A stretch of 33,725 nt of DNA. Source: Clostridia bacterium (GTDB lineage: Bacteria > Bacillota > Clostridia > Oscillospirales > SIG627). The stretch lies in NCBI GenBank assembly GCA_017517325.1, contig JAFWZW010000011.1:1-33725 (forward strand). Direction: 5' to 3'. Shown here piece by piece: positions 140 to 33,660 of the stretch. Both the position numbers and the translations under genes were made by a program. Numbering within the stretch: position 1 is the stretch's first letter; each line of letters starts with the position of its first letter. The notes under the pieces were generated by a model, which searched no databases, had not been told where the DNA came from, and worked only from the letters and a program-made list of their open reading frames with translations.

Positions 140-400
140 CTTATCACTATGATCTATGAATATATTTCTATTTTTTTCAGTGCGAAGTTTCTTCGGTTCC
201 TTCTTTTCAAAGAAGGAACAAGTTTCTTTGCGGAAAGCGAGAAAATGACACGGGTGTCATTTTCGATGTCTTTTCGACCGCCGGAACCCGACTGTGCCGA
301 GCCGAATGGCGATGGCAGAGTCACGGTTCCAAGGTGTCACCTTCTTTTTCAAAAGAAAAAACGCCCGTGCGGCAAGCACACTCCCTGCAAGAGCAAAGAA
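140..400. repeat. Composite palindromic repeat, copy R1 (long form)
   Basis: This covers the non-coding stretch left of the DUF896 gene. It holds a CTATGAATATAT arm (central module), the GTTCCTTCTTT / AAAGAAGGAAC palindrome (196-219) and the extra 128-bp block (230-357). The open reading frames here are low-complexity products of the repeat, and I see no gene in 1-408. Confidence 0.8.
230..357. repeat. 128-bp structured repeat, copy 1
   Basis: It matches 15531-15658 in the same orientation with two mismatches over 128 bases. It contains a perfect 10-bp stem with a GG loop (242-263), then a longer hairpin at 283-330: GGAACC/GGTTCC, GACT/AGTC, TGCC/GGCA and an inner GCC-GAAT-GGC. The mismatch at base 323 falls in an internal loop, so it does not disturb the stem. 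The function is unknown; it may be an RNA or DNA structural element. Confidence 0.85.
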
Positions 401-427
401 AAAGAGCCTCATTGAGGCTCTTTTTTG
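398..427 (-). terminator. Intrinsic terminator of the pgm-DUF896 transcript
   Basis: AAAGAGCCTC pairs with GAGGCTCTTT around a 3-base loop, with A/T runs on both sides, so it could work in both directions. The stop codon of the DUF896 gene (409-411) lies inside the stem. Confidence 0.85.
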
Positions 428-627
428 TTTTGAATCAGCGGCGTAACACTGCCGTCGGGGTTTTGAATGTCAATGCGCCCAAGAGCGGCAAGGGTACTGC
501 GGCGGAAATCGGCAATGTACTCTTTTCGAAGGGCATCACGCTCTGCCAGCTCCGCTTCCGTCAGCCCTTCGGGGCTTTTTGCTTTTCTTGCAAGGGCATT
601 GATCCGATCGATTTTATCCTGCGTCAT
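409..627 (-). CDS. DUF896 (UPF0291/YnzC-like) family protein
   Basis: A 72-residue protein that starts with MTQDKIDRINALARKAK and continues with LTEAELAERDALRKEY and a FRRSTLAAL segment, then a DGSVTPL tail. This is the pattern of the small helical UPF0291/DUF896 proteins of Bacillota such as B. subtilis YnzC, whose function is not settled. Its ATG overlaps the TGA of the phosphohexomutase gene by four bases (ATGA), so translation is probably coupled. Its own stop lies inside a terminator stem. The family call is confident; no reaction can be assigned. Confidence 0.9.
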   Translation of the reverse strand: MTQDKIDRINALARKAKSPEGLTEAELAERDALRKEYIADFRRSTLAALGRIDIQNPDGSVTPLIQNKKEPQ

Positions 628-2135
628 GCCAAAAACTCCTTTAAGGGGGTAATATCAAGTCCTGAAACGGTCTCAAGGAAGGTGGCAAGCTTTGCCGCTA
701 AGATCTTGCAGCCGCCGGGGATATTGGATTCCACGTTCAGGGGCATCACGGGGTCGTGCACGGAAAGGCGCAGAAGGAACCAGCCGTCACCCTCACCGCC
801 GCCGAAGGCAATGCGTACACCCTCGAAGCTGTCGTCAGCCACGGCCCAGCCCTGCTCTTTGCCAAAGGCCTCCAGATCCCCGAGGATCCTTTCGCCCACA
901 GGTCTGAAATCGCTCTCGGTAATGTTAAAGCGCAGCTCAATGGACTCTGCGGGCTCCTCAAGCTTTTCAATAAGCTCTACCAGATCCTTCCCTGCCTTTT
1001 TCATTTTAGCCGCCTCGATGAGAATACGGGTGGCAAGGTAGGCGCCGTCATCCAGAAAATAGTTTTCGCGGAGCGCCGCGTGGCCGCTGGTCTCAATGGC
1101 AAGGGGGGTATTGATCCCCGCCTTATTCATTTCAATGGCCTTGTTGATCACGTTCTTGTAGCCGCGCTTGAAGCGAACGTGCTTTCCGCCCAAAGTCTCT
1201 TCAATAAAGGTCTTAAGGCCGGAGGAGGTAATGGAGTCGGTAACCACGGCGCCGCCTTCGTTCCCCTGCAGGGCGATGACGGAAGCCAGCGCAACCAAAC
1301 GGTTGCGGTTGATCTCACGGCCGGTGGAATCCACACAGCCCGCTCTGTCCACGTCGGTATCAAAAATAATACCCAGATCCGCACCTGCGTTTTTCACAGC
1401 GCGGCAGGCAAAGCCCATAGCCTCTTTGTTTTCGGGGTTGGGAATGTGGTTGGGGAAGGAGCCGTCGGGCTCAAGAAATTCAGAGCCGGAGGTTTCGGCA
1501 CCCAAGGGTTGAAGCACCTTGGAAACGTAGAAGCCGCCTGCGCCGTTGCCTGCGTCAACGGTGACGTGGAAGCCTGCAAGGGGCTGATCCCCGCCGCCCA
1601 CACCCTCGGTGATCTGAGCGCGCAGTCTCTCTGCGTAGGTATCCATATAGGAGACCTCTTCTACGGAGCCGCCTGCCTTGGCAGGGGCAAATCTACCTTC
1701 CTGACAAAGGGTCAGGATCTCCTTGATATCGTCACCCTCAAGGCCGCCCGTGGGCAGGAAGAATTTCAGGCCGTTGCGGTTCCAGGGGTGGTGAGAAGCG
1801 GTGATCTGAATGGCTGCGTCGGTCTTCAGATCCACCGTGGTCATAAACATAGCGGGGGTGGAGGCCAAGCCACAAAGCAGAATGCGAATACCTGCGGCGG
1901 AAAGGGTCTTTTCCAAGATCTTCATAATGCGGGGGCCGGAAAGGCGGCTGTCACGGCCGATGGCAACGGTCAGACTTTCCTTCTCCGTTTTGTCATACAG
2001 CCAAATGGCAAAGGCAGAAGCGATCTTTTCCACGATCTCATCGGTGAGATCCACGCTCTGTCCCTCCACGCCCTCCAGGGCGACACCGCGGATATCCGTT
2101 CCGCTTTTCAAATTCTTCCAGGGTTCCATCAGCAT
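624..2135 (-). CDS. Phosphohexomutase (phosphoglucomutase/phosphomannomutase family)
   Basis: A 503-residue alpha-D-phosphohexomutase, expected to interconvert hexose 1- and 6-phosphates in the cytoplasm. Visible motifs are the phosphoserine loop TASHHPWNRNG (Ser114; the usual form is TASHNP), the metal loop DTDVDR (259-264; usually DGDADR) and the sugar-binding loop ETSGH (348-352). The C-terminal phosphate-binding domain has EGVRIAFGGGEGDGWFLLR. The first ATG is preferred because GGAGG sits 8 bases before it; a second ATG two codons later is too far away. It lies 20 bases downstream of ftsK and is coupled to the DUF896 gene. The substrate (glucose, mannose or glucosamine) cannot be told from motifs. 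Confidence 0.92.
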   Translation of the reverse strand: MLMEPWKNLKSGTDIRGVALEGVEGQSVDLTDEIVEKIASAFAIWLYDKTEKESLTVAIGRDSRLSGPRIMKILEKTLSAAGIRILLCGLASTPAMFMTTVDLKTDAAIQITASHHPWNRNGLKFFLPTGGLEGDDIKEILTLCQEGRFAPAKAGGSVEEVSYMDTYAERLRAQITEGVGGGDQPLAGFHVTVDAGNGAGGFYVSKVLQPLGAETSGSEFLEPDGSFPNHIPNPENKEAMGFACRAVKNAGADLGIIFDTDVDRAGCVDSTGREINRNRLVALASVIALQGNEGGAVVTDSITSSGLKTFIEETLGGKHVRFKRGYKNVINKAIEMNKAGINTPLAIETSGHAALRENYFLDDGAYLATRILIEAAKMKKAGKDLVELIEKLEEPAESIELRFNITESDFRPVGERILGDLEAFGKEQGWAVADDSFEGVRIAFGGGEGDGWFLLRLSVHDPVMPLNVESNIPGGCKILAAKLATFLETVSGLDITPLKEFLA

Positions 2136-2155
2136 AAATTTATCCTCCGAATTTT

Positions 2156-4741: not shown

Positions 4742-5076
4742 TACAAATCCTCCAAAGGTTTCGCAGTCAATGGGATGATCACGTCCACGTCGTCAGGATC
4801 GGCGCCCGTCAGCGCCGCCTTGTTTTGATGGAGCATCCCACATTTTTTACATCGGTAGATAATTTGAAAGCCCTTTTTGGGGTGGGGCTTTGCAGATACG
4901 GGCTCCAGTACACCGCGGCAGGGATTGGCGCGGTCACCGGGGTTGATATCCACGTGGAGACTGGAGAGGCACTTAGGGCAATGATCCCGACTGGTGACCC
5001 CGTTGGGCTTCACCTCGTAGCCGCAGACCACGCAGGTAAACCCTCCGTCGTTTTTCTGAAATCGTTTTTCTTCCAT
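4741..5076 (-). CDS. RNHCP-domain zinc-ribbon protein
   Basis: A 111-residue protein with two zinc-ribbon-like cysteine pairs near the start (CVVCGYE, HCPKCL) and another (CKKCGML) after residue 70. The SRDHCPKCLSSLHVD segment matches the RNHCP domain, a small bacterial family of unknown function. A longer reading frame runs back to 5205, but its extra 43 residues come from the composite repeat. The ATG at 5076 has AAAGGA 7 bases upstream and begins MEEKRFQKNDGGF, so I use that start. It is translationally coupled to ftsK. Confidence 0.85.
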   Translation of the reverse strand: MEEKRFQKNDGGFTCVVCGYEVKPNGVTSRDHCPKCLSSLHVDINPGDRANPCRGVLEPVSAKPHPKKGFQIIYRCKKCGMLHQNKAALTGADPDDVDVIIPLTAKPLEDL

Positions 5077-5095
5077 ATTTTTATCCTTTATATGC

Positions 5096-5295
5096 CCAGG
5101 CACGCTGGCCGCGTAGGCGCCCTCGCCGGGCAGGCCTCCTTTCTTTGAAAAGAAAGGAGCAAAGAAACTTCGCACTGAAATAAAAGTAATATGTTCACAG
5201 ATCATAGCTAAGAGCTTTGCACTATGAATCTATAAAAAATCCCCCATTACGAAAGTTTTGGGAGGTTTGGAACCTTTTTTCAAAAAGGTTCCAAG
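5096..5295. repeat. Composite palindromic repeat, copy R2
   Basis: It lies between the RNHCP gene and the PPTase gene. Module A is CTCCTTTCTTT / AAAGAAAGGAG (5136-5159). Module B is TTGGAACCTTTTT / AAAAAGGTTCCAA (5267-5294), which begins 6 bases after the PPTase stop codon. A degraded central module and GC-rich ends (CGCGTAGGC, CCGGGCAGGC) are also present. Confidence 0.85.
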
Positions 5296-5300
5296 AAATC

Positions 5301-5792
5301 CTAATAGGCGCAGGTAATGCGCGTGCCTTCCAGCACGAAGGAATCCAGATGAAATTCGGAATTTTCCAGCATGGCTCCCGTTGGGGTCAGGCGCACCTTC
5401 AAAGCGTGAGAAAGCCCCACACCCGTCAGCTTCGCCACCGCCTCCCGCCCGGTCCAGACCTGAGCAAAGGGGAGGGACTGCTCAAAGGGAGTAAAATAGC
5501 GCAAGGCAACCCGAGAGCGCACCGCTCCCTCCGGCTCCGCATCCACCCCAATGGGAAAGGGGGCAAAAGCAAAGAGAAGGAAAGAGCCCGTGTGGGTCAC
5601 GGAAAGGAAATGGCCGTGAAAGCCGGGAAAGTATGGCTTCCCGGCTTCGGTAAAATGTACTTCTTTTGGCTCGGCCCCCACCAAGCGGCAGTATTCCTCC
5701 ACTGCCACGGGGAGAAGCTTTCTTGAATCAAGAGCGGCTTCCCCCTTGGTGCGGTACCAAATATAGGTGATCTTATTCCTCGTCAGAAGCAT
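5301..5792 (-). CDS. 4'-phosphopantetheinyl transferase superfamily protein
   Basis: A protein of about 163 residues of the Sfp/AcpS superfamily, which moves 4'-phosphopantetheine from CoA onto a serine of acyl or peptidyl carrier proteins. Family signatures are SVTHTGSFLLFAF, the magnesium-binding GVDAEP, and WTGREAVAKLTGVGL, which corresponds to the W-x-x-KEA-x-x-K motif with Arg in place of the first Lys. The ATG at 5792 is preferred because GAGGA lies 8 bases upstream; a start at 5813 would have no clear ribosome site. The gene overlaps the end of gyrA by 20 bases in another frame. Its carrier-protein partner is not in this window. Confidence 0.85.
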   Translation of the reverse strand: MLLTRNKITYIWYRTKGEAALDSRKLLPVAVEEYCRLVGAEPKEVHFTEAGKPYFPGFHGHFLSVTHTGSFLLFAFAPFPIGVDAEPEGAVRSRVALRYFTPFEQSLPFAQVWTGREAVAKLTGVGLSHALKVRLTPTGAMLENSEFHLDSFVLEGTRITCAY

Positions 5793-8601: not shown

Positions 8602-10668
<2,067 letters not shown>

Positions 10669-10682
10669 TTAAAGTCTTATGT

Positions 10683-10886
10683 ATGCCCTCGCCGCGTAGG
10701 CCTTACTTCTTTTGAAAAAGAAGTAAGCAAGAAAACTTCGTAATGGGATATTTTTATGCATTCATAGTGCGAAGCTTTTGGCTATGATCTGTGAATATAT
10801 TTTTATTATTTCAGTGCAAAGTTTTTGGAGGTTTGGAACCTTTTTTCAAAAAGGTTCCAAGCAGGTCGTAGGGCGGCAGCCCTATC
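10683..10886. repeat. Composite palindromic repeat, copy R3 (complete form)
   Basis: It lies between remB and gyrB and shows all modules: a GC-rich end (CTCGCCGCGTAGGC), module A CTTACTTCTTTT / AAAAGAAGTAAG (10702-10727), a central hairpin ATTCATAG / CTGTGAAT (10760-10796), module B TTGGAACC / GGTTCCAA (10833-10860), and a TAGGGC-GGCA-GCCCTA hairpin (10869-10884) just after the remB stop. Confidence 0.88.
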
Positions 10887-15136: not shown

Positions 15137-15423
15137 ATATAGTGACCGTAAAAGGGTATAATTATAGTAATATATATTATTATACTATATATTACCGTAA
15201 ATTTCAAGTCTTTTTGTGTGGAAAAAAGTCATCTTTTCCACAGGCTTTACCCTTTCTCCTTTCCTCGTTATTTTTAATAAAACCGTGTGGGATGGGGTTT
15301 CGATATTTCGAAATTGTCTGTAGTATAACATTGCCACATACTGCCACACAATGACCAGTTTTTAAACAAAGAAAAACGCAACGTTTTCGCACTATGTATC
15401 TATAAATTCATCCATTACAAAGT
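15137..15423. promoter_or_regulatory. Upstream dnaA region: A/T-rich tract and DnaA-box-like sites
   Basis: A run of nearly pure A/T lies at about 15151-15200. Two facing relaxed boxes follow, TGTGGAAAA (15217-15225) and TTTTCCACA (15234-15242), and two TGCCACA copies at 15332 and 15342. The layout would suit the second half of a bipartite origin, with an unwinding region overlapping the dnaA promoter. No gene is supported here. Confidence 0.5.
15179..15207 (-). promoter_or_regulatory. dnaA promoter
   Basis: On the minus strand, TTGAAA (15202-15207) and TATAAT (15179-15184) are separated by 17 bases, a near-consensus vegetative promoter. The expected leader is about 70 bases long. Confidence 0.82.
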
Positions 15424-15531
15424 TTTCTTCGGTTCCTTCTTTTCAAAGAAGTATCAGCGTTTGGTTTTAAGCAAAGCTAAAAAAACGATTGCAAATGAAT
15501 GTATTTTTTATTCCATTACAAAGTTTTCTTG
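15424..15531. repeat. Left arm of 108-bp perfect inverted repeat around murI
   Basis: Every base of 15424-15531 is the reverse complement of 16552-16659, read in the opposite order. Matching stops at both ends (T against G outside; C against G inside). The arms enclose 1,020 bases that hold murI. Confidence 0.95.
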
Positions 15532-15658
15532 CGGAAAGCGAGAAAATGACACGGGTGTCATTTTCGATGTCTTTTCGACCGCCGGAACCCGACTGTGCCG
15601 AGCCGAATGGCGATGGCAGAGTCCCGGTTCCAAGGTGTCAACTTCTTTTTCAAAAGAA
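15531..15658. repeat. 128-bp structured repeat, copy 2
   Basis: Same orientation as 230-357, with two differences in 128 bases. The 10-bp stem with GG loop falls at 15543-15564. The block sits between the murI inverted-repeat arm and module A of a composite repeat, as if inserted there. Confidence 0.85.
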
Positions 15659-15691
15659 GTAACAAAAAAATAACGAAATTTCGTTGCGAAT

Positions 15692-16499: not shown

Positions 16500-16525
16500 A
16501 TGGTCACCGTTTTCGTTGCGTTATT

Positions 16526-16785
16526 GTTACTTCTTTTGAAAAAGAAGTAACCAAGAAAACTTTGTAATGGAATAAAAAATACATTCATTTGCAATCGTTT
16601 TTTTAGCTTTGCTTAAAACCAAACGCTGATACTTCTTTGAAAAGAAGGAACCGAAGAAACTTCGCACTGAAAAAAATAGAAATAGATTCATAGATCATAG
16701 TGATAAGGTTTGCACTATGAATATATAAAATCACCGTTACGAAGGGTTTTGAGGGTTTGGGAACTTTTTGCAAAAAGTCCCCAAG
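16526..16785. repeat. Composite palindromic repeat, copy R5
   Basis: It fills the spacer between the membrane-protein gene at 16793 and murI. Module A is at 16527-16550, the right inverted-repeat arm at 16552-16659, the central ATTCATAG / CTATGAAT hairpin at 16686-16722, and a module B variant TTGGGAAC / GTCCCCAA with one mismatch at 16757-16784, 8 bases after the stop codon. Confidence 0.85.
16552..16659. repeat. Right arm of 108-bp perfect inverted repeat around murI
   Basis: Exact reverse complement of 15424-15531. It lies within composite repeat R5. Confidence 0.95.
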
Positions 16786-16792
16786 AAAAAAA

Positions 16793-18374: not shown

Positions 18375-18606
18375 GTCCTCGCCGCCCTATGCCCTCGGCC
18401 GGGCAGGCCTTACTTCTTTTGAAAAAGAAGTAAGCAAGAAAACTTCGCACAAAAAAATATATTCATAGATCACAGTTTTGTTTATAGCAAAGCTTAAAAA
18501 CGATAGCGAATGAATCTATTTTTATTCTTTCAGTGCGAAGTTTCTTTACTCCTTTCTTTTCAAAGAAAGGAGGCCTACGCGGCGAGCGTGCCTGCCCGGC
18601 GAGGAC
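18375..18606. repeat. Composite palindromic repeat, copy R6, with terminal inverted repeats
   Basis: It lies between rplT and the deacylase gene. The unit starts with GTCCTCGCCG (18375-18384) and ends with its complement CGGCGAGGAC (18597-18606). Inside are module A (18409-18434) and CTCCTTTCTTT / AAAGAAAGGAG (18549-18572), plus A/T-rich centre sequence that is a diverged relative of the murI inverted-repeat arms. Apart from the deacylase promoter and the rplT terminator, I see nothing else in 18304-18656. Confidence 0.87.
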
Positions 18607-18612
18607 GTAAGG

Positions 18613-18648
18613 ACAAAAAAAGAAACAACCGTTAGGTTGCTTCTTTTA
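18613..18648 (-). terminator. Intrinsic terminator of infC-rpmI-rplT
   Basis: On the minus strand, AGAAGCAACC pairs with GGTTGTTTCT around a 4-base loop and is followed by a T run. It begins a few bases after the rplT stop. Confidence 0.88.
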
Positions 18649-20976: not shown

Positions 20977-21001
20977 AGGCTTTTCTCCTTGTTTTTTTAG
21001 A

Positions 21002-21240
21002 TAAGCGCTCGCCGCGCAGGCGTTACTTCTTTTTAAAAAGAAGTAACCAAGAAAACTTTATGCCGGAAAAATAAAGATATATTCAGTGATCGTAGCCGAA
21101 AGCTTCGCACTATGAATCTATCAAAAATTCCCCCATTACGAAGTTTCTTCGGTTCCTTCTTTTCAAAGAAGGAACAAGTTTTTGGGGTTTCAGACCCTTT
21201 TTTCAAAAAGGGTCTGAGCCTGCCCGGCGAGGGCGCATGC
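21002..21240. repeat. Composite palindromic repeat, copy R7
   Basis: It lies between the MORN gene and nrdR. Module A is a perfect 24-bp palindrome (TTACTTCTTTTT and its complement, 21023-21046). A second palindrome GTTCCTTCTTT / AAAGAAGGAAC is at 21162-21185. Module B here is CAGACCC / GGGTCTG (21201-21226), with both arms changed relative to the GGAACC form so that pairing is kept. GC-rich ends are present. Confidence 0.88.
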
Positions 21241-22534: not shown

Positions 22535-22560
22535 AGGATCTCCTTTGTTGTCAGAGCTTT

Positions 22561-22745
22561 TTCTTGGAACCTTTTTGAAAAAAGGTTCCAAACCTCCAAA
22601 AACTTTCGTAAAGGGGAATTTTTATATATTCATAGTGCAAAACTTATGGCTATGATCTATGAATATATTTTTATTATTTTCGGTGCGAAGTTTTCTTCGG
22701 TTCCTTCTTTTTCAAAAGAAGGAACGCCAGCCCGGCGAGGGCGCC
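22561..22745. repeat. Composite palindromic repeat, copy R8
   Basis: It lies between serS and the membrane-protein gene. Module B TTGGAACC / GGTTCCAA is at 22564-22591. The central hairpin has a perfect 12-bp stem ATATATTCATAG / CTATGAATATAT (22624-22635 with 22657-22668). Module A GTTCCTTCTTTT / AAAAGAAGGAAC is at 22700-22725. A GC-rich end (CCGGCGAGGGCGCC) faces serS. Confidence 0.9.
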
Positions 22746-24065: not shown

Positions 24066-24105
24066 TTCCTTTTCTTCCTTCTGTTGTAATTTATTGTAAA
24101 GTGAT

Positions 24106-25005
24106 TTATAAATTCAAAAGAAAATCTTCACCGCAAAGGGTGCAAAGGACTTCCTCTAAATCTTTGGAATCGAAATATTCCAGGGTGATCTTCCCTCTTC
24201 CGGAGCCGTCATCCTTAATGGCCACCTTACGGCCAAGGCTTGCGGCGGCGCGGTTGGCCACCTCTTTCATCTGTGCCAAAAGCACCTCGTTTTTGGCCTT
24301 TTCACGGCTGACCTTCTGAATGGGAGCGCCTCCCTCTAAAATGTTCCGAACTGCTTCCTCCACCTGACGAACGGTCATTTCCCGATCTACGATGCAAAGG
24401 AGCATATCGTTGATGGCGCCTTCATCCTTCAAGGGCAAAAGAGCCCTTGCGTGACCTGCGGTAATGATCCCCTGCTTCAGCATACTCTGGGCGGAAACGG
24501 GGAGATTCAAAAGGCGCAGAGCGTTGGCAACGGCTGCGCGGCTCTTGCCCAGCTGACGGGCGGCTTCCTCCTGAGTCAGGTTGAAGGAGCGCATAAGAAC
24601 GGCGTAGCCGTTGGCCTCGTCAATGGGGTTCAGATCCTCACGCTGAAGGTTTTCGATGAGCGCCGCTTCCTGAGCAGCCTTGGCATCCAGATCGCGCACG
24701 ATCACGGGCACTTCCTTCAGCCCTGCCAGCTTGGATGCGCGATAGCGCCGTTCACCGGAGATGATCTGGTAGCCCGCGCCGAATTTGCGCACCAAAAGGG
24801 GTGAGATCACACCGTGAATGGCAATGGAATCTGCCAGCTCCTGCAGGGTATCGTCGTGAAAGATCTTGCGGTGCTGTTTTTCATCGGGATATACCTTTTC
24901 AATGGGAGCGGAAATGATGATCTCGCCCTCGCGCACAGCCTCTTCTTCGGGGGGCGGCGCGAACAGGGCGTCAAGCCCTTTTCCCAGCGCTTGCTTCTTT
25001 GCCAT
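24106..25005 (-). CDS. parB: Chromosome partition protein ParB/Spo0J
   Basis: A 299-residue CTP-dependent DNA clamp that loads at parS and spreads along DNA to position the origin. The start LGKGLDALF is typical. The CTP-binding box has ISGERRYRASKLAG, followed by ENLQREDLNPIDEA and the helix-turn-helix (LTQEEAARQLGKSRAAVANALRL). The C-terminal dimerisation region has GSGRGKITLEYFDSKDLEEV. Soj lies 2 bases upstream, and two perfect parS sites lie 90-150 bases before soj. Confidence 0.97.
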   Translation of the reverse strand: MAKKQALGKGLDALFAPPPEEEAVREGEIIISAPIEKVYPDEKQHRKIFHDDTLQELADSIAIHGVISPLLVRKFGAGYQIISGERRYRASKLAGLKEVPVIVRDLDAKAAQEAALIENLQREDLNPIDEANGYAVLMRSFNLTQEEAARQLGKSRAAVANALRLLNLPVSAQSMLKQGIITAGHARALLPLKDEGAINDMLLCIVDREMTVRQVEEAVRNILEGGAPIQKVSREKAKNEVLLAQMKEVANRAAASLGRKVAIKDDGSGRGKITLEYFDSKDLEEVLCTLCGEDFLLNL

Positions 25006-25007
25006 AT

Positions 25008-25766
25008 TCAGCCTCTTTTCTTCATCAGCTCGCGGGCGATCTCAAGGTAAGCCAGCGCGCCTTTTGAGTTTTTATCATAGTATAGAACGGGCTTTCCGTG
25101 GCTGGGAGCCTCGGAAAGGCGCACATTGCGAGGTACGGTGGTGCGAAAGATCCGATCCGGGAAGTATTTTCGGATCTCGGCGGCAACTGCAAGGGAGAGA
25201 TTCAGCCTGCCGTCGTACATCGTCAGGATCACCCCTGCCAGCTCCAGCTCGGGGTTATACATCTTTTTTACAAGCCCAATGGTATAAGTCAGCTGGCTTA
25301 AGCCCTCCAGCGCAAAGTATTCGCACTGCATAGGCACGATCACCCCTTTGGCGGCGCAAAGGCCGTTGAGGGTCAAAAGCCCAAGGCTTGGGGGGCAATC
25401 CATAATTACGTAATCGTAGCCACTTACCTGATCCAGCGCTTTTTTCAGAACGGATTCCCTGCCGTTTACTGCAGAAAGACCGATCTCCGCGCCCGCTAAA
25501 TTCATGGTTGCGGGCACGCACCAAAGCCCCTGATAGGGCGTTTTTTGGGTTGCTTCGCTGATGCTGATTCCTTCCAGAAGCACATCATAGGTGGAATAGG
25601 GCGCCTTGTCCTTATCAATGCCCACGCCGCTGGTGCAGTTGCCCTGGGGGTCGAGGTCAATGAGAAGCACCTTTTTACCCAAATGCCCCAAGGATGCGGC
25701 AACGTTAATGGCAGAAGTGGTCTTACCCACGCCGCCCTTCTGGTTAGCAAATGCCAGAATTTTCAT
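25008..25766 (-). CDS. soj: Chromosome partition ATPase ParA/Soj
   Basis: A 252-residue deviant Walker ATPase that moves ParB-parS complexes and, in B. subtilis, controls DnaA. Motifs are QKGGVGKTTSAINVA at residues 9-23, LLIDLDPQGN and the later YVIMDCPPSLG. It has no N-terminal DNA-binding extension, as expected for a chromosomal Soj. Its promoter is a perfect consensus and lies just downstream of a parS site, which suggests control by ParB. Its spacing to the ribosome site (AAGGA, 12 bases) is long. Confidence 0.97.
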   Translation of the reverse strand: MKILAFANQKGGVGKTTSAINVAASLGHLGKKVLLIDLDPQGNCTSGVGIDKDKAPYSTYDVLLEGISISEATQKTPYQGLWCVPATMNLAGAEIGLSAVNGRESVLKKALDQVSGYDYVIMDCPPSLGLLTLNGLCAAKGVIVPMQCEYFALEGLSQLTYTIGLVKKMYNPELELAGVILTMYDGRLNLSLAVAAEIRKYFPDRIFRTTVPRNVRLSEAPSHGKPVLYYDKNSKGALAYLEIARELMKKRG

Positions 25767-25805
25767 TTATATTTACGTTCCTTTTTATCTTTATATAGTT
25801 CTATC

Positions 25806-25834
25806 ATTATACCCCGTAGGCACCGTTTTGTCAA
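25806..25834 (-). promoter_or_regulatory. soj-parB promoter
   Basis: On the minus strand, TTGACA (25829-25834), 17 bases, TATAAT (25806-25811). The parS site at 25857-25872 ends 22 bases upstream of the -35 element. Confidence 0.92.
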
Positions 25835-25856
25835 CGAAGAGGCTGAATTTTCTCAT

Positions 25857-25872
25857 TGTTTCACGTGAAACA
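25857..25872. promoter_or_regulatory. parS site 1
   Basis: The exact 16-bp palindrome TGTTTCACGTGAAACA, the Bacillota parS consensus. The symmetry extends to 20 bases (25855-25874). Confidence 0.98.
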
Positions 25873-25903
25873 ATATATATATGCGCTCTGTTTTACAAAC
25901 AAA

Positions 25904-25919
25904 TGTTTCACGTGAAACA
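25904..25919. promoter_or_regulatory. parS site 2
   Basis: A second exact TGTTTCACGTGAAACA, 47 bases from the first, start to start. Both lie between soj and noc. Confidence 0.98.
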
Positions 25920-25930
25920 ATTCGCAATAC

Positions 25931-25963
25931 AAAAGGTGCTCCGTACGCTTGGTACGAAGCACC
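25931..25963 (-). terminator. Intrinsic terminator of noc
   Basis: GGTGCTCCGTAC pairs with GTACGAAGCACC (one mismatch) around a short loop, with a T run on the minus strand. It begins just after the noc stop codon and lies between noc and parS site 2. Confidence 0.85.
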
Positions 25964-25969
25964 CTACCG

Positions 25970-26806
25970 TTATGTTTTGGAGGTCTGCCCGTATTTGGGC
26001 ACCCGAATGGAATAAGAAATATAGTTCTCTTCGTCAACTTTATCCGCTTCTATGGAAAAGCCTGCCTCCCGTATATGAAAAATGGCCTTGTCAACGGAGT
26101 TGACGAAAAGGCGCACGTCCTTTACCACCAGCTTCCGAACGGGCTTCGGTGCTTGTGAGACCTTACCCGAGACCAAAAATTCATCCGGGTGCGACAAAAG
26201 CGCTTCCACAAAGGCTTCCGATTGCCCAACGCTGTAGCCACGGTCGATTATGAATTTCAGGGCGAACAGCCGAGTATCGGAATCCTGGATCCGCAAAAGC
26301 GCCCGTGCATGCCGCTGGGTCAGGCCGTTTTCCGTTATGAGCAGGCGCTCCTGAGAATCCAGCTTGAGTAGACGGATCTTGTTGGCAACGGCGCTTTGAC
26401 TTTGCCCCAAGCGATCGGCTAATTCCCCTTGGGTATAGTGAAACTGGCGGATCAGACGATCCATTGCGGCGGCCTCCTCGAAAAAATCAAGATCCGCCCG
26501 CTGTAGGTTTTCAATGAGGGTCATTTCCGCTCCCATACGGCCGTTCACGTCCAGAATGCGGCAAGGTACCTCCTCCATTTCCAGCATCTTGGCGGCGCGG
26601 AGTCTGCGCTCTCCCAAGAGCAGCTGGTAGCCGTCGCCCAGCTTTCGCACCGTTATGGGGCAAAGCATTCCGTAGCGGGCAATGCTTCCTGCAAGGCTTC
26701 TCAGCTCCTCCGTGGAAAAGCGGCGTCTTGCGGCATAGGGGTTTGGGTCAATGAGATCGGGCTTCAATAATTGTATTTTTTCCTGCTTCTTTTTGCATTT
26801 CCACAT
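25970..26806 (-). CDS. noc: ParB-family nucleoid occlusion protein Noc
   Basis: A 278-residue ParB paralogue that in Bacilli blocks division-ring assembly over the chromosome. It has LLGERRLRAAKMLEMEEVP (CTP box), ENLQRADLDFFEEA and a helix-turn-helix with YTQGELADRLGQSQSAVANK. The N-terminus is rich in Lys (MWKCKKKQEKIQLL), as in Noc proteins that bind membrane through this end. AAGGAG is 8 bases before the ATG at 26806; an earlier start at 26830 is less likely. Position upstream of soj-parB matches Noc, but I have not matched its DNA-binding helix to a specific site. Confidence 0.88.
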   Translation of the reverse strand: MWKCKKKQEKIQLLKPDLIDPNPYAARRRFSTEELRSLAGSIARYGMLCPITVRKLGDGYQLLLGERRLRAAKMLEMEEVPCRILDVNGRMGAEMTLIENLQRADLDFFEEAAAMDRLIRQFHYTQGELADRLGQSQSAVANKIRLLKLDSQERLLITENGLTQRHARALLRIQDSDTRLFALKFIIDRGYSVGQSEAFVEALLSHPDEFLVSGKVSQAPKPVRKLVVKDVRLFVNSVDKAIFHIREAGFSIEADKVDEENYISYSIRVPKYGQTSKT

Positions 26807-27057
26807 AAAATTCGCTCCTTTCCCCATCATTTTAGCCTTTTCAAAGGGCGAAGTTTGCCGAAGGGTGGTGGTGGATTCCGTCTACTTTTATCGAATTTTG
26901 TATTCATTTTACAATAAAACGAATTTTGTGGGAAGCGGAGAGGGGAAATGTCATTGACGAAAAGGGAATTTTGTGATATAATATATGCTACCTATCCCTA
27001 TATGGGTTTTAAACAGATATTTTCGTTTTTTATGATGGATATAGATTAGGAGTTAAG
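26807..27057. promoter_or_regulatory. Divergent noc / dnaD-like intergenic region
   Basis: This is the only divergent gene boundary in the window. It contains a strong plus-strand promoter (26954-26982) and a repeated CGAATTTTGT motif near 26890 and 26920. I found no TTATCCACA box here. A noc promoter is probable on the minus strand but no clear one stood out. Confidence 0.5.
26954..26982 (+). promoter_or_regulatory. Promoter of the dnaD-like and helicase-loader genes
   Basis: TTGACG (26954-26959), 17 bases, TATAAT (26977-26982). Confidence 0.88.
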
Positions 27058-28047: not shown

Positions 28048-29036
28048 TGTATAGCCGTGAGAATTTTGATAAGGTAAAGGCCCGCTTTTCGGAAAAAGCC
28101 CGCCGCGCCGAAGAGGAAGCACGCGAGCGTGCCCGTCGCGCTGAGGAGAAGAACCCCGAGCTGCACCGCCTTGGCCTTTTGATCCGCGCCACCGCCGTGC
28201 GGGTCTTGGAGGAGAGTATGAAGGGCGGTGACGACCTTGCCGACCGTGTGAAGGCCATCGGCAGGGAGACCCTGCGCCGTCAGGAGGAATACGCCGCAGA
28301 GCTTCGGAAAATGGGGCTCCCCGCCGACTACACCAAGCCCCGTTTTGAATGTGCCCTTTGTGAGGATACGGGGATCGTAGAAGGAAAAATGTGCACCTGT
28401 ATGAAGCGTGAGGTGGTTTTGGAGGGGTACCGTGCCTCCGGCATTGGCAAGCTCCTTGAAAAACAGCGCTTTGATAATTTTGATCTTTCCTATTATTCTC
28501 ACGTGCTTCTGCCCGATAAGCCCTATAGCCCCCGTGACGTGATGACCTCCATTTTTCAGGAAATGCGTGACTGGGCGGAGAATTTCTCCCCCGAGACCTC
28601 GCCCTCCCTTTTGTTTATCGGCGGTACGGGCTTGGGCAAGACCCACCTTTCCACCGCCATTGCGGGGAAGGTGATCGAAAAGGGCTTTGACGTGGTATAC
28701 GAATCGGCCCCTGCGGTGGCTTCTCTCTTTGAAAAGGATCGCTTCGGCAAGGACGAGGCCGTTTCCGAAAAGCTGCGCCGCATTTTCGAGGCCGAGCTTC
28801 TCATTTTGGACGATCTGGGTACCGAGCCTACCTCCCAGACTACCTCCTCCGCTTTCTATCAGCTGATCAACACCCGCGCTTCGGTGATGGGTCTGCCCAC
28901 CATTATCAGCACCAACCTCACCCACCATCAGCTGGAAAAGCAATACGACACCGCCACCCTTTCCCGCCTTTTGGGTGACTTTAAGGTGAAGCTCTTTTTA
29001 GGCAGTGACGTTCGCCGCGCCAAGCTTTCGATGTGA
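28047..29036 (+). CDS. DnaI/DnaC-like helicase loader ATPase
   Basis: A 329-residue AAA+ protein that loads the replicative helicase. The N-terminal helical, Arg/Glu-rich region is followed by a zinc-binding motif CALCEDTGIVEGKMCTC, typical of DnaI-like loaders. The ATPase core has Walker A GGTGLGKTHLS and Walker B LLILDDLGTE. The ATG shares one base with the TGA of the DnaD-like gene; a GTG one codon earlier (28044) is also possible. A composite-repeat palindrome begins 6 bases after its stop. An IstB-type transposon helper is unlikely because of the DnaD partner and the absence of transposase. Confidence 0.92.
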   Translation: MYSRENFDKVKARFSEKARRAEEEARERARRAEEKNPELHRLGLLIRATAVRVLEESMKGGDDLADRVKAIGRETLRRQEEYAAELRKMGLPADYTKPRFECALCEDTGIVEGKMCTCMKREVVLEGYRASGIGKLLEKQRFDNFDLSYYSHVLLPDKPYSPRDVMTSIFQEMRDWAENFSPETSPSLLFIGGTGLGKTHLSTAIAGKVIEKGFDVVYESAPAVASLFEKDRFGKDEAVSEKLRRIFEAELLILDDLGTEPTSQTTSSAFYQLINTRASVMGLPTIISTNLTHHQLEKQYDTATLSRLLGDFKVKLFLGSDVRRAKLSM

Positions 29037-29040
29037 GATT

Positions 29041-29205
29041 CCTTGGGAACTTTTTTCAAAAAGTTCCCAAACCCTCAAAAACTTGTTCCTTCTTTTTCAA
29101 AAGAAGGAACCAAGAAAACTTCGTAATTAATAAAACGTTTTCATCCATCATAGCTGTTGCCGTGATGGATGATTTATATTTCAGCGTGAAGTTTTCTTGC
29201 AAAAC
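29041..29205. repeat. Composite palindromic repeat, copy R9
   Basis: It lies between the helicase loader and the GH28-like gene. Module B TTGGGAAC / GTTCCCAA is at 29043-29070. Module A GTTCCTTCTTTT / AAAAGAAGGAAC follows at 29085-29110. The central hairpin has a perfect 10-bp stem TCATCCATCA / TGATGGATGA (29141-29150 with 29163-29172). Confidence 0.9.
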
Positions 29206-29224
29206 TTATTTTTTGTGGTATACT
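29197..29224 (+). promoter_or_regulatory. Promoter of the GH28-like gene
   Basis: TTGCAA (29197-29202), 16 bases, TATACT (29219-29224). The -35 element overlaps the end of composite repeat R9. Confidence 0.65.
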
Positions 29225-29258
29225 TGAGACAAAAGAGATCATACGTGGAGGACAACAA

Positions 29259-30593: not shown

Positions 30594-30617
30594 TCCCTCG
30601 GAGCGGTACTCGCCCCA

Positions 30618-30823
30618 CGGGCACGCTCGCCGCGTAGGCGTTACTTCTTTTGAAAAAGAAGTAACCGAAGAAAACTTTATTCCGAATAATAACAAAAATA
30701 ATAACATCCATCATAGCCGAAACTGTGATGGATGTTTTTTTCTATATTCCCCATTACGAAAGTTTTGAGGGTTTGGGAACTTTTTTCAAAAAGTTCCCAA
30801 CGGGTCGCAGGGCAGAGCCCTGC
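30618..30823. repeat. Composite palindromic repeat, copy R10 (complete form)
   Basis: It lies between the convergent GH28-like and fructokinase genes. It holds a GC-rich end (GCTCGCCGCGTAGGC), module A (30641-30664), a central hairpin (30704-30735), module B TTGGGAAC / GTTCCCAA (30773-30800) and a GCAGGGC-AGA-GCCCTGC hairpin (30807-30823) that ends 2 bases from the fructokinase stop. Confidence 0.9.
30704..30741 (+). terminator. Terminator of the GH28-like gene, formed by the repeat's central hairpin
   Basis: ACATCCATCA pairs with TGATGGATGT and is followed by a T run, giving a standard intrinsic terminator on the plus strand. Confidence 0.75.
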
Positions 30824-30825
30824 AC

Positions 30826-31788
30826 TCAATAATACTGCTTTTGGGTCTCCAGTACCTCGGCGAGGGGGGGTACGCTGGAAATGCCGCCGGGCTTGGCGGT
30901 GGAAAGACCTGCGCCTGTGCAGGCAAAGGAGGTAACGGCGTAAAGCTCATTTTCGTTCAGCTCTTCGGGGGCCTTGCCGATCTGCAGCAGCTTCCACACG
31001 GCACTGCCGCCGAAAATATCCCCTGCGCCGGTGGTATCAATGCGCTTCACGTGGGGAAGGCTGGGCACCTTGCCCTCAGCCTTGGCGTTCTTGAAAATAC
31101 AGCCGTCGCCGCCGCAGGTAACGAATACCAGCTTCACACTGTAGTTCTGAAGAATGTGCGCGGCGCCCTCTTGGGGATCAAGACCGAAGAGAAATTCCAC
31201 CTCGTCCTCACTGATCTTCACCACGTCTGCCTGAGAAAGACCCCAAAGCAGCTGCTTTTTCGCCTCTTCCAGATTTGCCCACAGGGGCTTGCGCAGGTTG
31301 GGATCGTAGGTGACAAGCTTCCCCTTTTCCTTTGCGTAGGCCACCGCCTTGTAGGTGGCGGTGCGGGCAGGCTCGTGGGTGAGAGAAAGGGTACCGAAGT
31401 GAAAGACCTTGGCGCTGTCGATGAGGGAAAGATCCAATTCCTCAAAGGAGATACAGGTATCGGCACCGGGCTTGCGTGCAAAGGAAAATTCACGGTCACC
31501 GTCAGGCGATAGGGTCACGAAGGCCAGGGTGGTGAATACGTCGTCGGCCTTAACGAGGCCTGCGGTCTCGATCCCGGCTTTTTGCAGGGTACCGGTAAGG
31601 AGCGTTCCGAAGGTATCGGCGCCCACCTTTCCCAAAAGGGCGGTCTTGGCACCGTAGCTTGCCAGCGCCGCAAGGAAATTGGCAGGAGCACCGCCGGGGT
31701 GCGCCGCCATGGTGGGGTATCCGTCTTCATCGGCTTTCGTGAAGGTGAAGTCAATTAAAAGCTCACCAAGTGCTACAACGTCGATCAT
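30826..31788 (-). CDS. PfkB-family fructokinase
   Basis: A 320-residue ATP-dependent sugar kinase. Family signatures are VALGELLIDF at the start, the substrate loop GGAPANFLAALA and the C-terminal catalytic motif DTTGAGDIFGG. The fructokinase (ScrK-like) group is the nearest match; a related sugar is possible. AAGGA is 7 bases before the ATG, and the gene follows the epimerase by 12 bases. It would trap the ketose made by the isomerase of the same operon. A repeat hairpin ends 2 bases after the stop and may end or protect the mRNA. Confidence 0.9.
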   Translation of the reverse strand: MIDVVALGELLIDFTFTKADEDGYPTMAAHPGGAPANFLAALASYGAKTALLGKVGADTFGTLLTGTLQKAGIETAGLVKADDVFTTLAFVTLSPDGDREFSFARKPGADTCISFEELDLSLIDSAKVFHFGTLSLTHEPARTATYKAVAYAKEKGKLVTYDPNLRKPLWANLEEAKKQLLWGLSQADVVKISEDEVEFLFGLDPQEGAAHILQNYSVKLVFVTCGGDGCIFKNAKAEGKVPSLPHVKRIDTTGAGDIFGGSAVWKLLQIGKAPEELNENELYAVTSFACTGAGLSTAKPGGISSVPPLAEVLETQKQYY

Positions 31789-31800
31789 AATTCGATCCTT

Positions 31801-32676
31801 TCAAAATACGGTAATGGTGTAATGGGTCTCGAAGAAGCCCCCCGCCTCTGCGATCACAAGGTCGCTTTTGGCGGTAAATTCCTCGTGGATATCCTGACGG
31901 CCGGGCAGGGAATGCCAAGGCTCCAAGCACACGTATTCCGCCGTGGTATTGGGCCAGTGCCAGATACCCAGATAGGGCATTTTGGGGTAGGAAAGGGCAA
32001 CGCCTCTGCCGCTCCTTTCCGAAACAAGCCTGAGGGCGCGGGGTACGTTCTTCAGGATCACCGCATCCTTTTCAAAAAGGCTGTGGGAAAGGGGAAGAAT
32101 GCAGTCGTCCTTCAAGGGGTAGGGCAAATCCTCCCCGCTGAGCAGAATGTTTTCCGTAAAGCCAACGCGGTCCGGCTTGGCAGGCACGGCAAATTCCACG
32201 CGGTAGTCCTCAAAGTCCTCGCCCTCCAAAAGGGGTACCCGAAAGCCGGGGTGCGCACCCAAGCCGAAGGGCATCCGTTCACTGCCGTGGTTTTCCACAC
32301 GGTAGGTGGTGGTAAGGGTTTCGCCCTCTAAACGGAAGGTTACGAAGAAGGAAAAATCAAAGGGGAAGCTTGCCCGGGTGGTCTCGTTTGCACGGAGCAC
32401 CAGAGTCAGCGCGTTCCCTTCGTGGGATACGAGGCTGAACTCCGAAGAGGAAGCAAAACCGTGCTTGGGCATTGGGAGCTCCTTACCCAAATAGCGGTAG
32501 CGCCCATCCATCAGCCTTCCGATAAAGGGGAAGAGAACGGGGCTGGTTTCAGGCCAGATGGCAGGGTCAGCCTGCCAAAGGTATTCGACTCCGTCACGGG
32601 AGACGAGACTGCGCATCTCCGCCCCGCGGGCGGCCACCTTCAGGGTCAGGCTTCCGTTTTGAATGACGTATTCCAT
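31801..32676 (-). CDS. Aldose 1-epimerase family protein (LacX-like)
   Basis: A 291-residue beta-sandwich mutarotase-like protein, which would speed conversion between alpha and beta anomers. Matching segments are GAEMRSLVSRDGVEYLW near residue 18, PVLFPFIGRL, PKHGFASSSEF, and LGAHPGF with the catalytic-site His, plus CLEPWHSLPGR with the putative catalytic Glu. The ATG shares one base with the TAA of the isomerase gene (TAATG), so the two are translated together. The sugar is not set by motifs; the operon suggests a lyxose or mannose type. Confidence 0.88.
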   Translation of the reverse strand: MEYVIQNGSLTLKVAARGAEMRSLVSRDGVEYLWQADPAIWPETSPVLFPFIGRLMDGRYRYLGKELPMPKHGFASSSEFSLVSHEGNALTLVLRANETTRASFPFDFSFFVTFRLEGETLTTTYRVENHGSERMPFGLGAHPGFRVPLLEGEDFEDYRVEFAVPAKPDRVGFTENILLSGEDLPYPLKDDCILPLSHSLFEKDAVILKNVPRALRLVSERSGRGVALSYPKMPYLGIWHWPNTTAEYVCLEPWHSLPGRQDIHEEFTAKSDLVIAEAGGFFETHYTITVF

Positions 32677-33365
32677 TATTTTGCCTCGGGGTATTCGGTA
32701 CAGAGCAGACGGTAGGGGGGCTCATCCTCCTCAATGGCGGGGAAGCGGCCGTTCAGCTCGGGGTTGAAGCGGTTGTCGTTGTGGTCGTCGTTGCACTGGC
32801 TCACCTCGCCCAAAAGCACGGGGCCCGTGCCCTCTTCCACCTCAAAATCGTGGTAGAGATACTGCTGAATGTGAATGCTCTCACCGGGGGTCAGGCGGAT
32901 CTGGGTGCCTGCGGGTACGGTGTAGGTGCGCCCGTCGGTATGTACCGTAACGGGGGATTCCTTGTCCATGGATTCATCGGGGAAGGAATTGTAAACGCGG
33001 ATCAGAACGTTGCCGCCGCCGCGGTTGATGATATCCTCCGTTTTGTACCAGTGGAAGTGGTTGGGGGAGTACTGACCCTCCTTCAGGTACAGAAGCTTTT
33101 CTGCGTATACCTTGGGGTATTTATCTGCCATTTGCAGGTTTCCGTTGCGAATGGTAATGAGGGAAAAGCCCATCTTGTCAAAATCGCCCATACCGTAATC
33201 GGTAATGTCCCAGCCCAGCTGGCACTCGCGGACCTCGTCGTACTCGTGGCCAAGGCTCTTCCACTCTTCGGGGGTGAAGTGGCAGAAGGGGGGGAGGTAG
33301 CAGCAGTGCTTTTGGCACATAGCCTCCAATTCCTTTAATGCGCGGTTGATCTCAGAACGTTTCAT
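32676..33365 (-). CDS. D-lyxose isomerase family protein
   Basis: A 229-residue cupin-fold isomerase of the D-lyxose ketol-isomerase family, which converts D-lyxose to D-xylulose and often D-mannose to D-fructose with a divalent metal. Metal ligands are in PNHFHWYKTEDIIN (His, His, Glu) with a further His in LYHDFEVEEG. The gene heads a three-gene operon with a consensus promoter. GGAGG is 4 bases before the ATG. The fructokinase at the operon's end fits the mannose-to-fructose route; I see no xylulokinase in the window. Confidence 0.88.
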   Translation of the reverse strand: MKRSEINRALKELEAMCQKHCCYLPPFCHFTPEEWKSLGHEYDEVRECQLGWDITDYGMGDFDKMGFSLITIRNGNLQMADKYPKVYAEKLLYLKEGQYSPNHFHWYKTEDIINRGGGNVLIRVYNSFPDESMDKESPVTVHTDGRTYTVPAGTQIRLTPGESIHIQQYLYHDFEVEEGTGPVLLGEVSQCNDDHNDNRFNPELNGRFPAIEEDEPPYRLLCTEYPEAK

Positions 33366-33430
33366 ATTTCCTCCTTATCAAATACGTCTGCTTCTACAAG
33401 CAGAGCGCGCTTCTCATTTTTTCCATTTCC

Positions 33431-33459
33431 ATTATAAAACAGTTGCCGCCCCTTGTAAA
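33431..33459 (-). promoter_or_regulatory. Promoter of the sugar-isomerase operon
   Basis: On the minus strand, TTTACA (33454-33459), 17 bases, TATAAT (33431-33436). The leader is about 60 bases long, and I found no operator. Confidence 0.85.
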
Positions 33460-33527
33460 TAGATGATTTCTCCAAAAAAATGGTTCGATTTTTTGATTTT
33501 GTGCTCATTCTTCGCATTTTGGCTCGT

Positions 33528-33660
33528 TGCAGGGCTGCCGCCCTACGTCCCGCTTGGAACCTTTTTGAAAAAAGGTTCCAAACCTCCAAAAACTTTTGCA
33601 CAAAAGAATAAAACGCTTTCATCCATTACAGTTTTTTGCCGTGATGGATGAATTTCTTTT
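33528..33660. repeat. Composite palindromic repeat, copy R11
   Basis: It holds an AGGGC-TGCC-GCCCT hairpin (33531-33544), module B TTGGAACC / GGTTCCAA (33554-33581) and a central hairpin TTCATCCATTAC / GTGATGGATGAA (33618-33629 with 33641-33652, one wobble). The rest of 33366-33725 holds the operon promoter and the terminal repeat; there is no gene. Confidence 0.87.

What the first reader, a model, noticed from the sequence alone, without database searches (positions are those of the whole stretch)
140..33660. A family of composite, three-palindrome repeats occupies almost every operon boundary
About eleven copies (R1-R11) share an ordered set of modules: GC-rich end, module A (CTTC-T-run and its complement), central ATTCATAG or CATCCATCA hairpin, then module B (GGAACC or GGGAAC around T and A runs), and often a short GGGC-GCCC hairpin. 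They occur in both orientations and are absent from within operons. The order of modules and the size suggest a non-autonomous mobile or REP-like family rather than chance terminators. I know of no named family with this layout.
Basis: partly seen in the sequence, partly recalled or inferred. Interest (0 to 1): 0.75.

Follow-up and report, generated by a model that had tools for sequence, protein, structure and literature searches.

The report
Repeats with triple-helix-capable ends
Between many genes of this gut bacterium sit short dispersed DNA elements whose inward-facing ends keep, through three-way matching changes, the sequence needed to fold into DNA triple helices, which suggests that the triple helix itself may matter for how these repeats spread or persist.

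Summary
In detail: eleven elements lie in 11 of 15 intergenic gaps of at least 100 bp. Plan: GC-rich flank, end unit, variable centre, inverted end unit, flank, with end types and centres swapped between copies. Each A- or B-type end is a palindrome with a T-run/A-run tip plus an inward linker that mirrors the palindrome arm. Tip and linker run lengths agree in 90 of 96 units, and arm and linker types change together (51 unique combinations, 0 of 20,000 permutations as good). This recurs in other families of the order (32 of 126 palindrome sides match, against 6.8 after flank swapping). It is what an intrastrand DNA triplex needs, as in the E. coli BoxC/PIT repeats; B-type ends would need a strand-switching triplex. 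Neighbouring units face inward in 36 of 44 pairs. Relatives lack the element at four of six junctions inspected. No Y1 (RAYT-type) transposase was found in this incomplete genome. Best reading: a non-autonomous dispersed element with triplex-capable ends. Triplex formation and mobility are inferred, not shown.

The parts
97..363 (.). Element R1: C3 centre (95-127), A-type end (palindrome 196-219, linker on its low side) and, in tandem, a D-type end (220-363: an A-type end with about 120 bp between palindrome and linker)
5119..5300 (.). Element R2: A-type end (palindrome 5136-5159), C1 centre, inverted B1 end (5267-5294)
10685..10885 (.). Element R3 between gyrB and hyp2: A-type end (10702-10727), C1 centre, inverted B1 end (10831-10862), GC-rich hairpin flank; no element there in G001 and in RGIG5579
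15380..15665 (.). Element R4: A-type end with a mixed palindrome (15432-15455), then centre and D-type end (15521-15665)
16510..16790 (.). Element R5, double: A end (16524-16553), mixed A end (16628-16651), C1 centre, inverted B2 end (16757-16784)
18380..18610 (.). Element R6 between ybaK and rplT: A end (18409-18434), centre, inverted A end (18549-18572); a separate terminator-like hairpin lies at 18618-18647
21000..21235 (.). Element R7 between nrdR and the MORN gene: A end (21022-21047), C1 centre, inverted A end (21152-21175), inverted B3 end (21190-21217); no element there in G001
22558..22745 (.). Element R8: B1 end (22564-22591), C1 centre, inverted A end (22700-22725), GC-rich flank
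29036..29215 (.). Element R9: B2 end (29043-29070) and A end (29083-29112) in tandem, C2 centre (about 29142-29175), right side with a linker but no palindrome
30606..30815 (.). Element R10: A end (30640-30665), C2 centre (30703-30736), inverted B2 end (30773-30800), GC-rich hairpin flank
33535..33725 (.). Element R11: B1 end (33552-33583), C2 centre, cut by the contig end
22592..22607 (+). Example of the linker of a B1 end (CCTCCAAAAACTT), the proposed third strand for palindrome 22564-22591

Best explanation
The repeats are dispersed, non-autonomous intergenic elements of about 180-290 bp. A full copy has two end units in inverted orientation around a variable centre. An end unit is a palindrome with a T-run/A-run tip plus an inward linker that can lie on the palindrome's hairpin as a third strand. 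In A-type ends the linker mirrors the purine arm (AAAAGAAG...GAAGAAAA): purine motif on one strand, pyrimidine motif on the other. In B-type ends (GGAACC/CCTCC, GGGAAC/CCCTC, GGAACCC/CCTCCC, GAAACC/CTTCC), read on the strand where the linker is 5' of the hairpin, the third strand would bind the right-arm purines in parallel (T.AT, G.GC), skip one base at the purine/pyrimidine junction, then bind the left-arm purines antiparallel (A.AT, G.GC). Proposed working: when the DNA is single-stranded (replication, repair) the two ends fold into triplex-locked hairpins facing each other; these are what an unidentified recombination or transposition activity recognises, or what provokes template switching that copies the element and exchanges ends and centres. 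Shown here: anatomy, three-way covariation, inward pairing, presence/absence between relatives, near-identical copies. Inferred: that the triplex forms, that it is DNA rather than RNA, that the element moves, and by what enzyme.
For: Exchange of ends and centres in 48 hairpin clusters listed from the window and 20 own-genome stretches, 28 of them with two or more non-terminator hairpins. T-run and A-run lengths equal in 90 of 96 units over lengths 3, 4, 5 and 6. Arm/linker matching: 51 unique combinations, score 209.5 against 105.0 (sd 9.6), 0 of 20,000 permutations; also 0 within A (17) and within B (34); taken apart, arm block 8 and run length 6 of 20,000 within A, 0 and 0 within B. De novo test not conditioned on the linker motif: sides with a matching third strand 39 of 130 (own), 35 of 156 (genus), 9 of 56 (other genera of the family), 32 of 126 (other families), against flank-swapped means of 7.1, 5.7, 2.4 and 6.8. 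14 third strands in the window, 0 in 60 Markov sequences. Inward pairs 17 of 22 in own stretches and 19 of 22 elsewhere. No element at four junctions in relatives; at rplT-ybaK a terminator-like hairpin is separate and present in all three genomes compared (by eye). D-type block: 8 further long copies at 94-99% identity.
Against: No biophysical data. Only 39 of 65 own-genome T/A-tip palindromes (35 of 78, 9 of 28, 32 of 63 elsewhere) pass the third-strand threshold, and the arm-reversed control still gave 11 hits in the other families (against 32) and 4 in the genus (against 35). The stretches outside the own genome were mostly chosen because repeat searches had hit there, so they are enriched for linker-bearing units. 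The rule allows one skipped base and two letters over C-G pairs; permutation and swapping allow for this, shared ancestry is not removed. In A-type ends 0 of 6 left-arm A positions fit, in B-type 28 of 43. On the opposite strand B-type ends would put C over C-G pairs, not a usual triad. Some distant units break the rule (L172 and L183 GGGGAC with CCTTC, L178 GGGGAC with CCCCC). In seven D-type copies read, run lengths are equal in four, unequal in two and unclear in one. Holder et al. did not find the E. coli motif as a stable triplex in vivo. Two of six junctions are not evidence of absence: hyp5-serS is occupied in G001 too, and the racemase-side junction could not be compared; G001 also has units upstream of dnaA, where the window has R4. 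No target-site duplication seen by eye, no transposase identified, no close strain with an empty site.
Confidence: 0.58

Rival explanations
1. Host-function reading: the elements are kept because the triplex hairpins do something for the chromosome, such as slowing or marking replication near the origin, so that they are domesticated sites rather than parasites.
For: The window is the origin region (dnaA, dnaN, recF, gyrAB, parAB and two TTTCACGTGAAA sites). In this genome 25 of 33 A-type hits (E <= 1.1e-5) lie on five small contigs that make up 8% of the assembly, and the 11 stronger hits that I listed for the 299-kb contig C9 lie in its last 51 kb. Polymerase block in vitro is reported for E. 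coli PIT elements (passage citing earlier work).
Against: Occupancy is not conserved: four junctions lack it in relatives. In G001 the listed hits are spread over many contigs. The contigs and threshold were chosen after seeing the data; a weak A-type hit lies at C9:108515 (E = 0.0026), and 19 of the 54 B-type matches in G000 were not listed. The positions of C4, C9, C11, C16 and C20 relative to the origin are unknown, and repeats themselves break assemblies into small contigs.
Confidence: 0.15
2. RNA-level reading: the repeats are transcribed between operons and work as bidirectional terminators or 3'-end protectors.
For: Strong folding (DNA parameters, z = -5.96 for R8), intergenic position, and C3 centres that look like ordinary bidirectional terminators.
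Against: In A and B ends the T-run lies inside the palindrome tip, not after the stem. At rplT-ybaK a separate terminator-like hairpin is present with and without the element. B-type triads need purine-motif parts, which are stated not to form in RNA. Rfam has no match at gathering threshold.
Confidence: 0.12
3. Ordinary MITE or REP family: only the palindromes matter, and the linker match is inherited by descent within a few subfamilies.
For: Subfamilies exist (A, B1, B2, B3) and copies within them are alike. REP and BOX families show a similar intergenic spread (passages).
Against: Matching arm/linker pairs come in several different forms in five other families of the order (with some mismatches; tested), and arms and linker change together in length and base. 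No Y1_Tnp match in the own genome.
Confidence: 0.15

Closest known systems
Intrastrand triplex motifs of bacteria: BoxC / PIT elements / TM-ECO (Holder et al. 2015, PMC4666352; abstract, sections 10, 15, 16 and the first parts of sections 3 and 20 read, plus passages)
   Same: Dispersed intergenic hairpin plus mirror-symmetric third strand in one DNA strand; no known function; inverted (palindromic) occurrences mentioned
   Different: TM-ECO is a G/C-rich purine motif counted there in 262 proteobacterial genomes; here the ends are A/T-tipped, in Clostridia, placed in inward pairs around a centre, and B-type ends need a strand switch that does not fit the four classes described there
BOX elements of streptococci (PMC3049150; passages only)
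   Same: Composite, modular, intergenic repeats, modules permuted between copies, proposed parasitic
   Different: boxA-boxB-boxC order; no triplex feature in the passages seen; sequences not compared here
REP repeats and RAYT transposases (PMC3733652; abstract and passages only)
   Same: Short palindromes dispersed in the genome, possibly mobile
   Different: GTAG or CGTC tag and REPtron association are the hallmarks there; no Y1_Tnp match in the own genome and no units near 14 family Y1_Tnp loci
MITEs such as Correia elements (recalled; named in a passage of PMC3049150)
   Same: Inverted ends, about 100-250 bp, no gene
   Different: No target-site duplication or parental insertion sequence found here; other transposase families were not searched

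Membership tests
Intrastrand triplex (PIT/TM) repeats | Hairpin plus third strand obeying triad rules in one strand | tested here: met
   A-type ends by a mirror rule, B-type by a strand-switch rule, on sequence alone
Intrastrand triplex (PIT/TM) repeats | Homopurine/homopyrimidine arms of one of the four published classes | tested here: inconclusive
   A-type read as class II (class IV on the other strand) by inspection; B-type arms mix purines and pyrimidines; the published program was not run
Intrastrand triplex (PIT/TM) repeats | TM-ECO consensus sequence | tested here: not met
   the end-unit alignments differ from the published consensus (by inspection)
Intrastrand triplex (PIT/TM) repeats | Triplex shown by CD/NMR | not testable with these tools
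   needs oligonucleotides
REP/RAYT | Y1 tyrosine transposase in the genome, next to repeats | tested here: not met
   0 matches in the own genome (81% complete, so absence is not certain); no units in 14 family Y1_Tnp loci
REP/RAYT | GTAG or CGTC tag at one end | not tested
   some flanks read GTAGGGC...GCCCTA, no systematic test
MITE | Inverted ends around a centre | tested here: met
   36 of 44 adjacent pairs inward; many single ends exist
MITE | Target-site duplication and empty site | tested here: inconclusive
   no element at four of six junctions inspected in relatives, no duplication seen by eye, relatives too distant
BOX | boxA, boxB, boxC sequences | not tested
   no BOX sequence was compared
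Intrinsic terminator | GC-rich stem followed by a T-run | tested here: not met
   A and B ends have the T-run at the tip; C3 centres do look like terminators

The most novel reading that the evidence does not exclude
A class of transposable elements whose ends are defined by DNA triple helices, including a natural strand-switching triplex, recognised by an unknown enzyme as REP hairpins are by RAYTs; three-way covariation would then be an evolutionary record that triplexes form in living bacteria.
Probability: 0.25. Interest if true: 0.88.

Novelty: new variant of a known kind. Interest (0 to 1): 0.65.

Why it matters
Whether intrastrand DNA triplexes form and matter in bacterial cells is open: the E. 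coli motif folds in vitro, but the published in vivo footprint did not support a stable triplex. Three-way covariation between two hairpin arms and a third strand, seen in several families of one order, is an evolutionary argument of the kind used for RNA structures, and it makes the question testable. The B-type ends also offer natural candidates for strand-switching triplexes.

Tried and rejected
RAYT/IS200: searched and not linked. Known RNA family: no Rfam match at gathering threshold in the window. tRNA: none in the window. Phage or plasmid carriage: two exact patterns in viral contigs gave 0 each, and blastn of R8 alone against plasmids and phages gave no match. Watson-Crick pairing of the linker with its own hairpin arms as the cause of the match: rejected, because the linker is a mirror, not an inverted, copy of the arm (by inspection). 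The arm-reversed control gave 0, 4, 0 and 11 hits. Compound transposon around the racemase gene: the 108-bp inverted copies are identical, but a racemase homologue (53% identity) also sits near hyp4 and ybaK homologues in G003, so a fresh insertion is unlikely. Origin clustering as a general property: not supported in G001.

Literature: seven searches. PMC4666352 is the only title on intrastrand triplex repeats in bacteria in these listings; others that hold the term (PMC7015867 and PMC8044849 among them) were seen in the listing only. The main text of PMC4666352 has no hit for Clostridi, Faecalibacterium or Ruminococc; its supplement and database were not read, and they cover thousands of genomes, so A-type motifs may be listed there. 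PMC2267715 was seen in passages only. Strand-switching triplexes are recalled from oligonucleotide chemistry; one search returned no paper on such repeats in genomes.

Rows dropped: 10 poly-T units of G001 were left out of alignment A1 (56 of 66 used) and 1 spurious row out of A2 (40 of 41); the 91 looser B-type candidates were not used beyond that. One of 96 parsed units was dropped and one parse corrected for the statistics. Alignments A1 and A2 required an AAACTT-type linker; one search did not. One search had a script error (a variable was overwritten), so its zero rows are void; one search replaces it. The rule was formed on own-genome, genus and L015 units and by reading 19 loci of other families before the formal test. 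The order and class samples are partial draws (296, 197 and 391 genomes). On re-checking, the number of own-genome places was corrected to 48 clusters, D-type run lengths were added, and confidence went from 0.60 to 0.58 because of the D-type mismatches; the ordinary-MITE rival went from 0.13 to 0.15.
Full report
WHAT WAS CLAIMED AND WHAT IS THERE. The window is contig C10 of a 24-contig, 1.74-Mb, 81%-complete genome. It holds the origin region: gyrA, gyrB, recF, dnaN, dnaA, two parB genes and parA, with two TTTCACGTGAAA sites (parS is recalled as their name). The repeats are real. I count eleven elements, in 11 of 15 gaps of at least 100 bp (one search supports the small gene assumed between rplT and infC).

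GRAMMAR. Listing palindromes with their surroundings in the window and 20 fetched own-genome stretches gives 48 clusters, 28 with two or more non-terminator hairpins. They share a plan: GC-rich flank, end unit, centre, inverted end unit, flank. End units come as A (GTTCCTTCTTTT, GTTACTTCTTTT, CTCCTTTCTTT), B1 (GGAACC), B2 (GGGAAC), B3 (AGACCC) and D. The D type is an A-type end with about 120 bp between palindrome and linker; it has 8 further long copies at 94-99% identity, three of them at contig ends, and one shorter match. Centres come as C1 (ATTCATAG), C2 (CATCCATCA), C3 (a terminator-like hairpin) and others. Ends and centres occur in many combinations.

THE LINKER IS PART OF THE END. In A and B types the inward linker mirrors the palindrome arm: AAAAGAAG then GAAGAAAA; GGAACC with CCTCC; GGGAAC with CCCTC; GGAACCC with CCTCCC; GAAACC with CTTCC (the last by reading). 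Tip T-run and linker A-run lengths agree in 90 of 96 units, over lengths 3 to 6. Of the 6 exceptions, two are parse errors (one linker misread, one taken from the wrong side). With 51 unique arm/linker combinations the match score is 209.5; permuted linkers give 105.0 with sd 9.6, and 0 of 20,000 reach it. Within A alone and B alone it is also 0 of 20,000; taken apart, arm block and run length reach the observed value 8 and 6 times of 20,000 within A and never within B. Permutation does not remove shared ancestry. In seven D-type copies read, run lengths are equal in four, unequal in two and unclear in one.

INDEPENDENT FAMILIES. A covariance model of B-type ends finds matches in 47 of 296 genomes of the order (28 of 148 genera) at E <= 1e-4, own genome included. 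In a class-wide draw it finds 3 of 391 at E <= 1e-5, of which only G303 (E = 8e-6) lies outside the order. The A-type model (sequence only) finds 9 of 197 genomes of the order at E <= 1e-5, mainly G000 and G001. In 81 stretches (1.41 Mb; and the window), most of those outside the own genome chosen because of hits, I took all palindromes with a T/A tip without asking for a linker motif. Sides with a matching third strand: own 39 of 130, genus 35 of 156, other genera of the family 9 of 56, other families 32 of 126. Swapping flanks among palindromes gives means of 7.1, 5.7, 2.4 and 6.8 (200 swaps; maxima 15, 14, 6 and 12). Reversing the arm gives 0, 4, 0 and 11. Many palindromes do not match (26 of 65 in the own genome, 43 of 78, 19 of 28 and 31 of 63 elsewhere), and some distant units break the rule.

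WHAT THE MATCH MEANS. A mirror copy next to a hairpin cannot pair with it by Watson-Crick rules but can lie on it as a third strand. A-type ends are the textbook case: R.RY on one strand, Y.RY on the other. For B-type ends the letters fit best on the strand where the linker is 5' of the hairpin: T.AT and G.GC parallel to the right-arm purines, a one-base skip at the purine/pyrimidine junction, then A.AT and G.GC antiparallel to the left-arm purines. The triad table for B (alignment chosen to fit the rule, so optimistic) shows left C with linker C in 49 of 54 cells, left G with C in 69 of 72 and left A with T in 28 of 43. For A it shows left T with A in 42 of 42, left C with G in 23 and C in 13 of 37, and left A with T in 0 of 6. 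The A positions are thus the weakest. Strand-switching triplexes are known to me from oligonucleotide work (recalled); I found no natural repeat family of this sort in the listings. That the triplex would be DNA and not RNA rests on a statement that purine-motif triplexes do not form in RNA.

PAIRS FACE INWARD. Of adjacent units less than 300 bp apart, third strands face each other in 17 of 22 pairs in own stretches, 7 of 10 in the genus, 1 of 1 in other genera of the family and 11 of 11 in other families (threshold 3.5). The composite plan is thus shared, although single units are common (18 of 59, 28 of 47, 18 of 20 and 29 of 51 unpaired).

GAIN AND LOSS. Gene order is shared with G001, whose contig C20 has the same length as that of Oscillospiraceae bacterium SIG619 (59,643 bp). 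Six junctions were printed and read by eye. At hyp2-gyrB the window has a 257-bp gap with an element, while G001 and RGIG5579 have about 40-50 bp without one. At nrdR-MORN and RNHCP-hyp1 G001 lacks it, and at rplT-ybaK G001 and G003 lack it; there a terminator-like hairpin is present with and without the element. At hyp5-serS both G000 and G001 have units; the racemase-side junction could not be compared with G003. G001 also has units upstream of dnaA. This shows turnover, not a dated insertion. No duplication was seen.

WHERE THEY CLUSTER. In this genome 25 of 33 A-type hits at E <= 1.1e-5 lie on five small contigs that make up 8% of the assembly, one of them the origin contig, and the 11 stronger A- and B-type hits that I listed on contig C9 lie in its last 51 kb. 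The contigs and threshold were chosen after seeing the data; a weak A-type hit lies at C9:108515 (E = 0.0026), and 19 of 54 B-type matches in G000 were not shown. Near-identical copies break assemblies, which favours small contigs. The other contigs could not be placed relative to the origin, and G001 shows no such clustering in the listed hits.

MOBILISER. Y1_Tnp: 0 in the own genome, 9 of 23 family genomes, no units beside the 14 loci in the flanks held. Other transposase families were not searched. Two exact patterns in viral contigs and one element against phages and plasmids gave nothing.

VERDICT. The family is real and its anatomy is now clearer than in the finding. The anatomy and three-way covariation are the firm part. 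Triplex formation is the simplest reason for them. Dispersal by an unknown activity is the likeliest history. It works like, and in A-type ends looks like, the BoxC/PIT intrastrand triplex repeats; B-type ends and the inward pairing around an exchangeable centre make it a new variant.

Noticed in passing
1-95 and 33631-33725: The first and last 95 bases of the window are identical and in direct orientation, and contig C11 of the same genome starts with much of the same sequence; most likely an assembly overlap at a repeated element centre, not a circular replicon, since the contig holds dnaA, gyrAB and ftsK.
   Followed up: partly
15424-15531 and 16552-16659: Two 108-bp copies, 100% identical and inverted, flank an Asp/Glu racemase gene; a possible invertible segment.
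   Followed up: partly
24106-26830: Two parB-like genes flank parA, with two TTTCACGTGAAA sites just upstream of parA.
   Followed up: no
95-127 and similar C3 centres: Element centres of type C3 look like captured bidirectional terminators; a related stand-alone hairpin is seen at G000 C9:261820-261857.
   Followed up: no
15432-15455 and 16628-16651: Mixed palindromes whose two arms resemble different A subtypes, as if copies had been exchanged at the hairpin tip.
   Followed up: no
G000 C4, C9, C10, C11, C16: The D block (about 145 bp, 94-99% identical copies) sits at ends of contigs C9, C11 and C16 and near the start of C10; it looks like the most recently spread part and may fragment the assembly.
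   Followed up: partly
G001 contigs C11, C20, C23, C25, C29, C8: A further end type with a pure T-run arm (GTTCC plus T6, linker CGAAAAAACTT), which fits the same rule by eye but was left out of the statistics.
   Followed up: no
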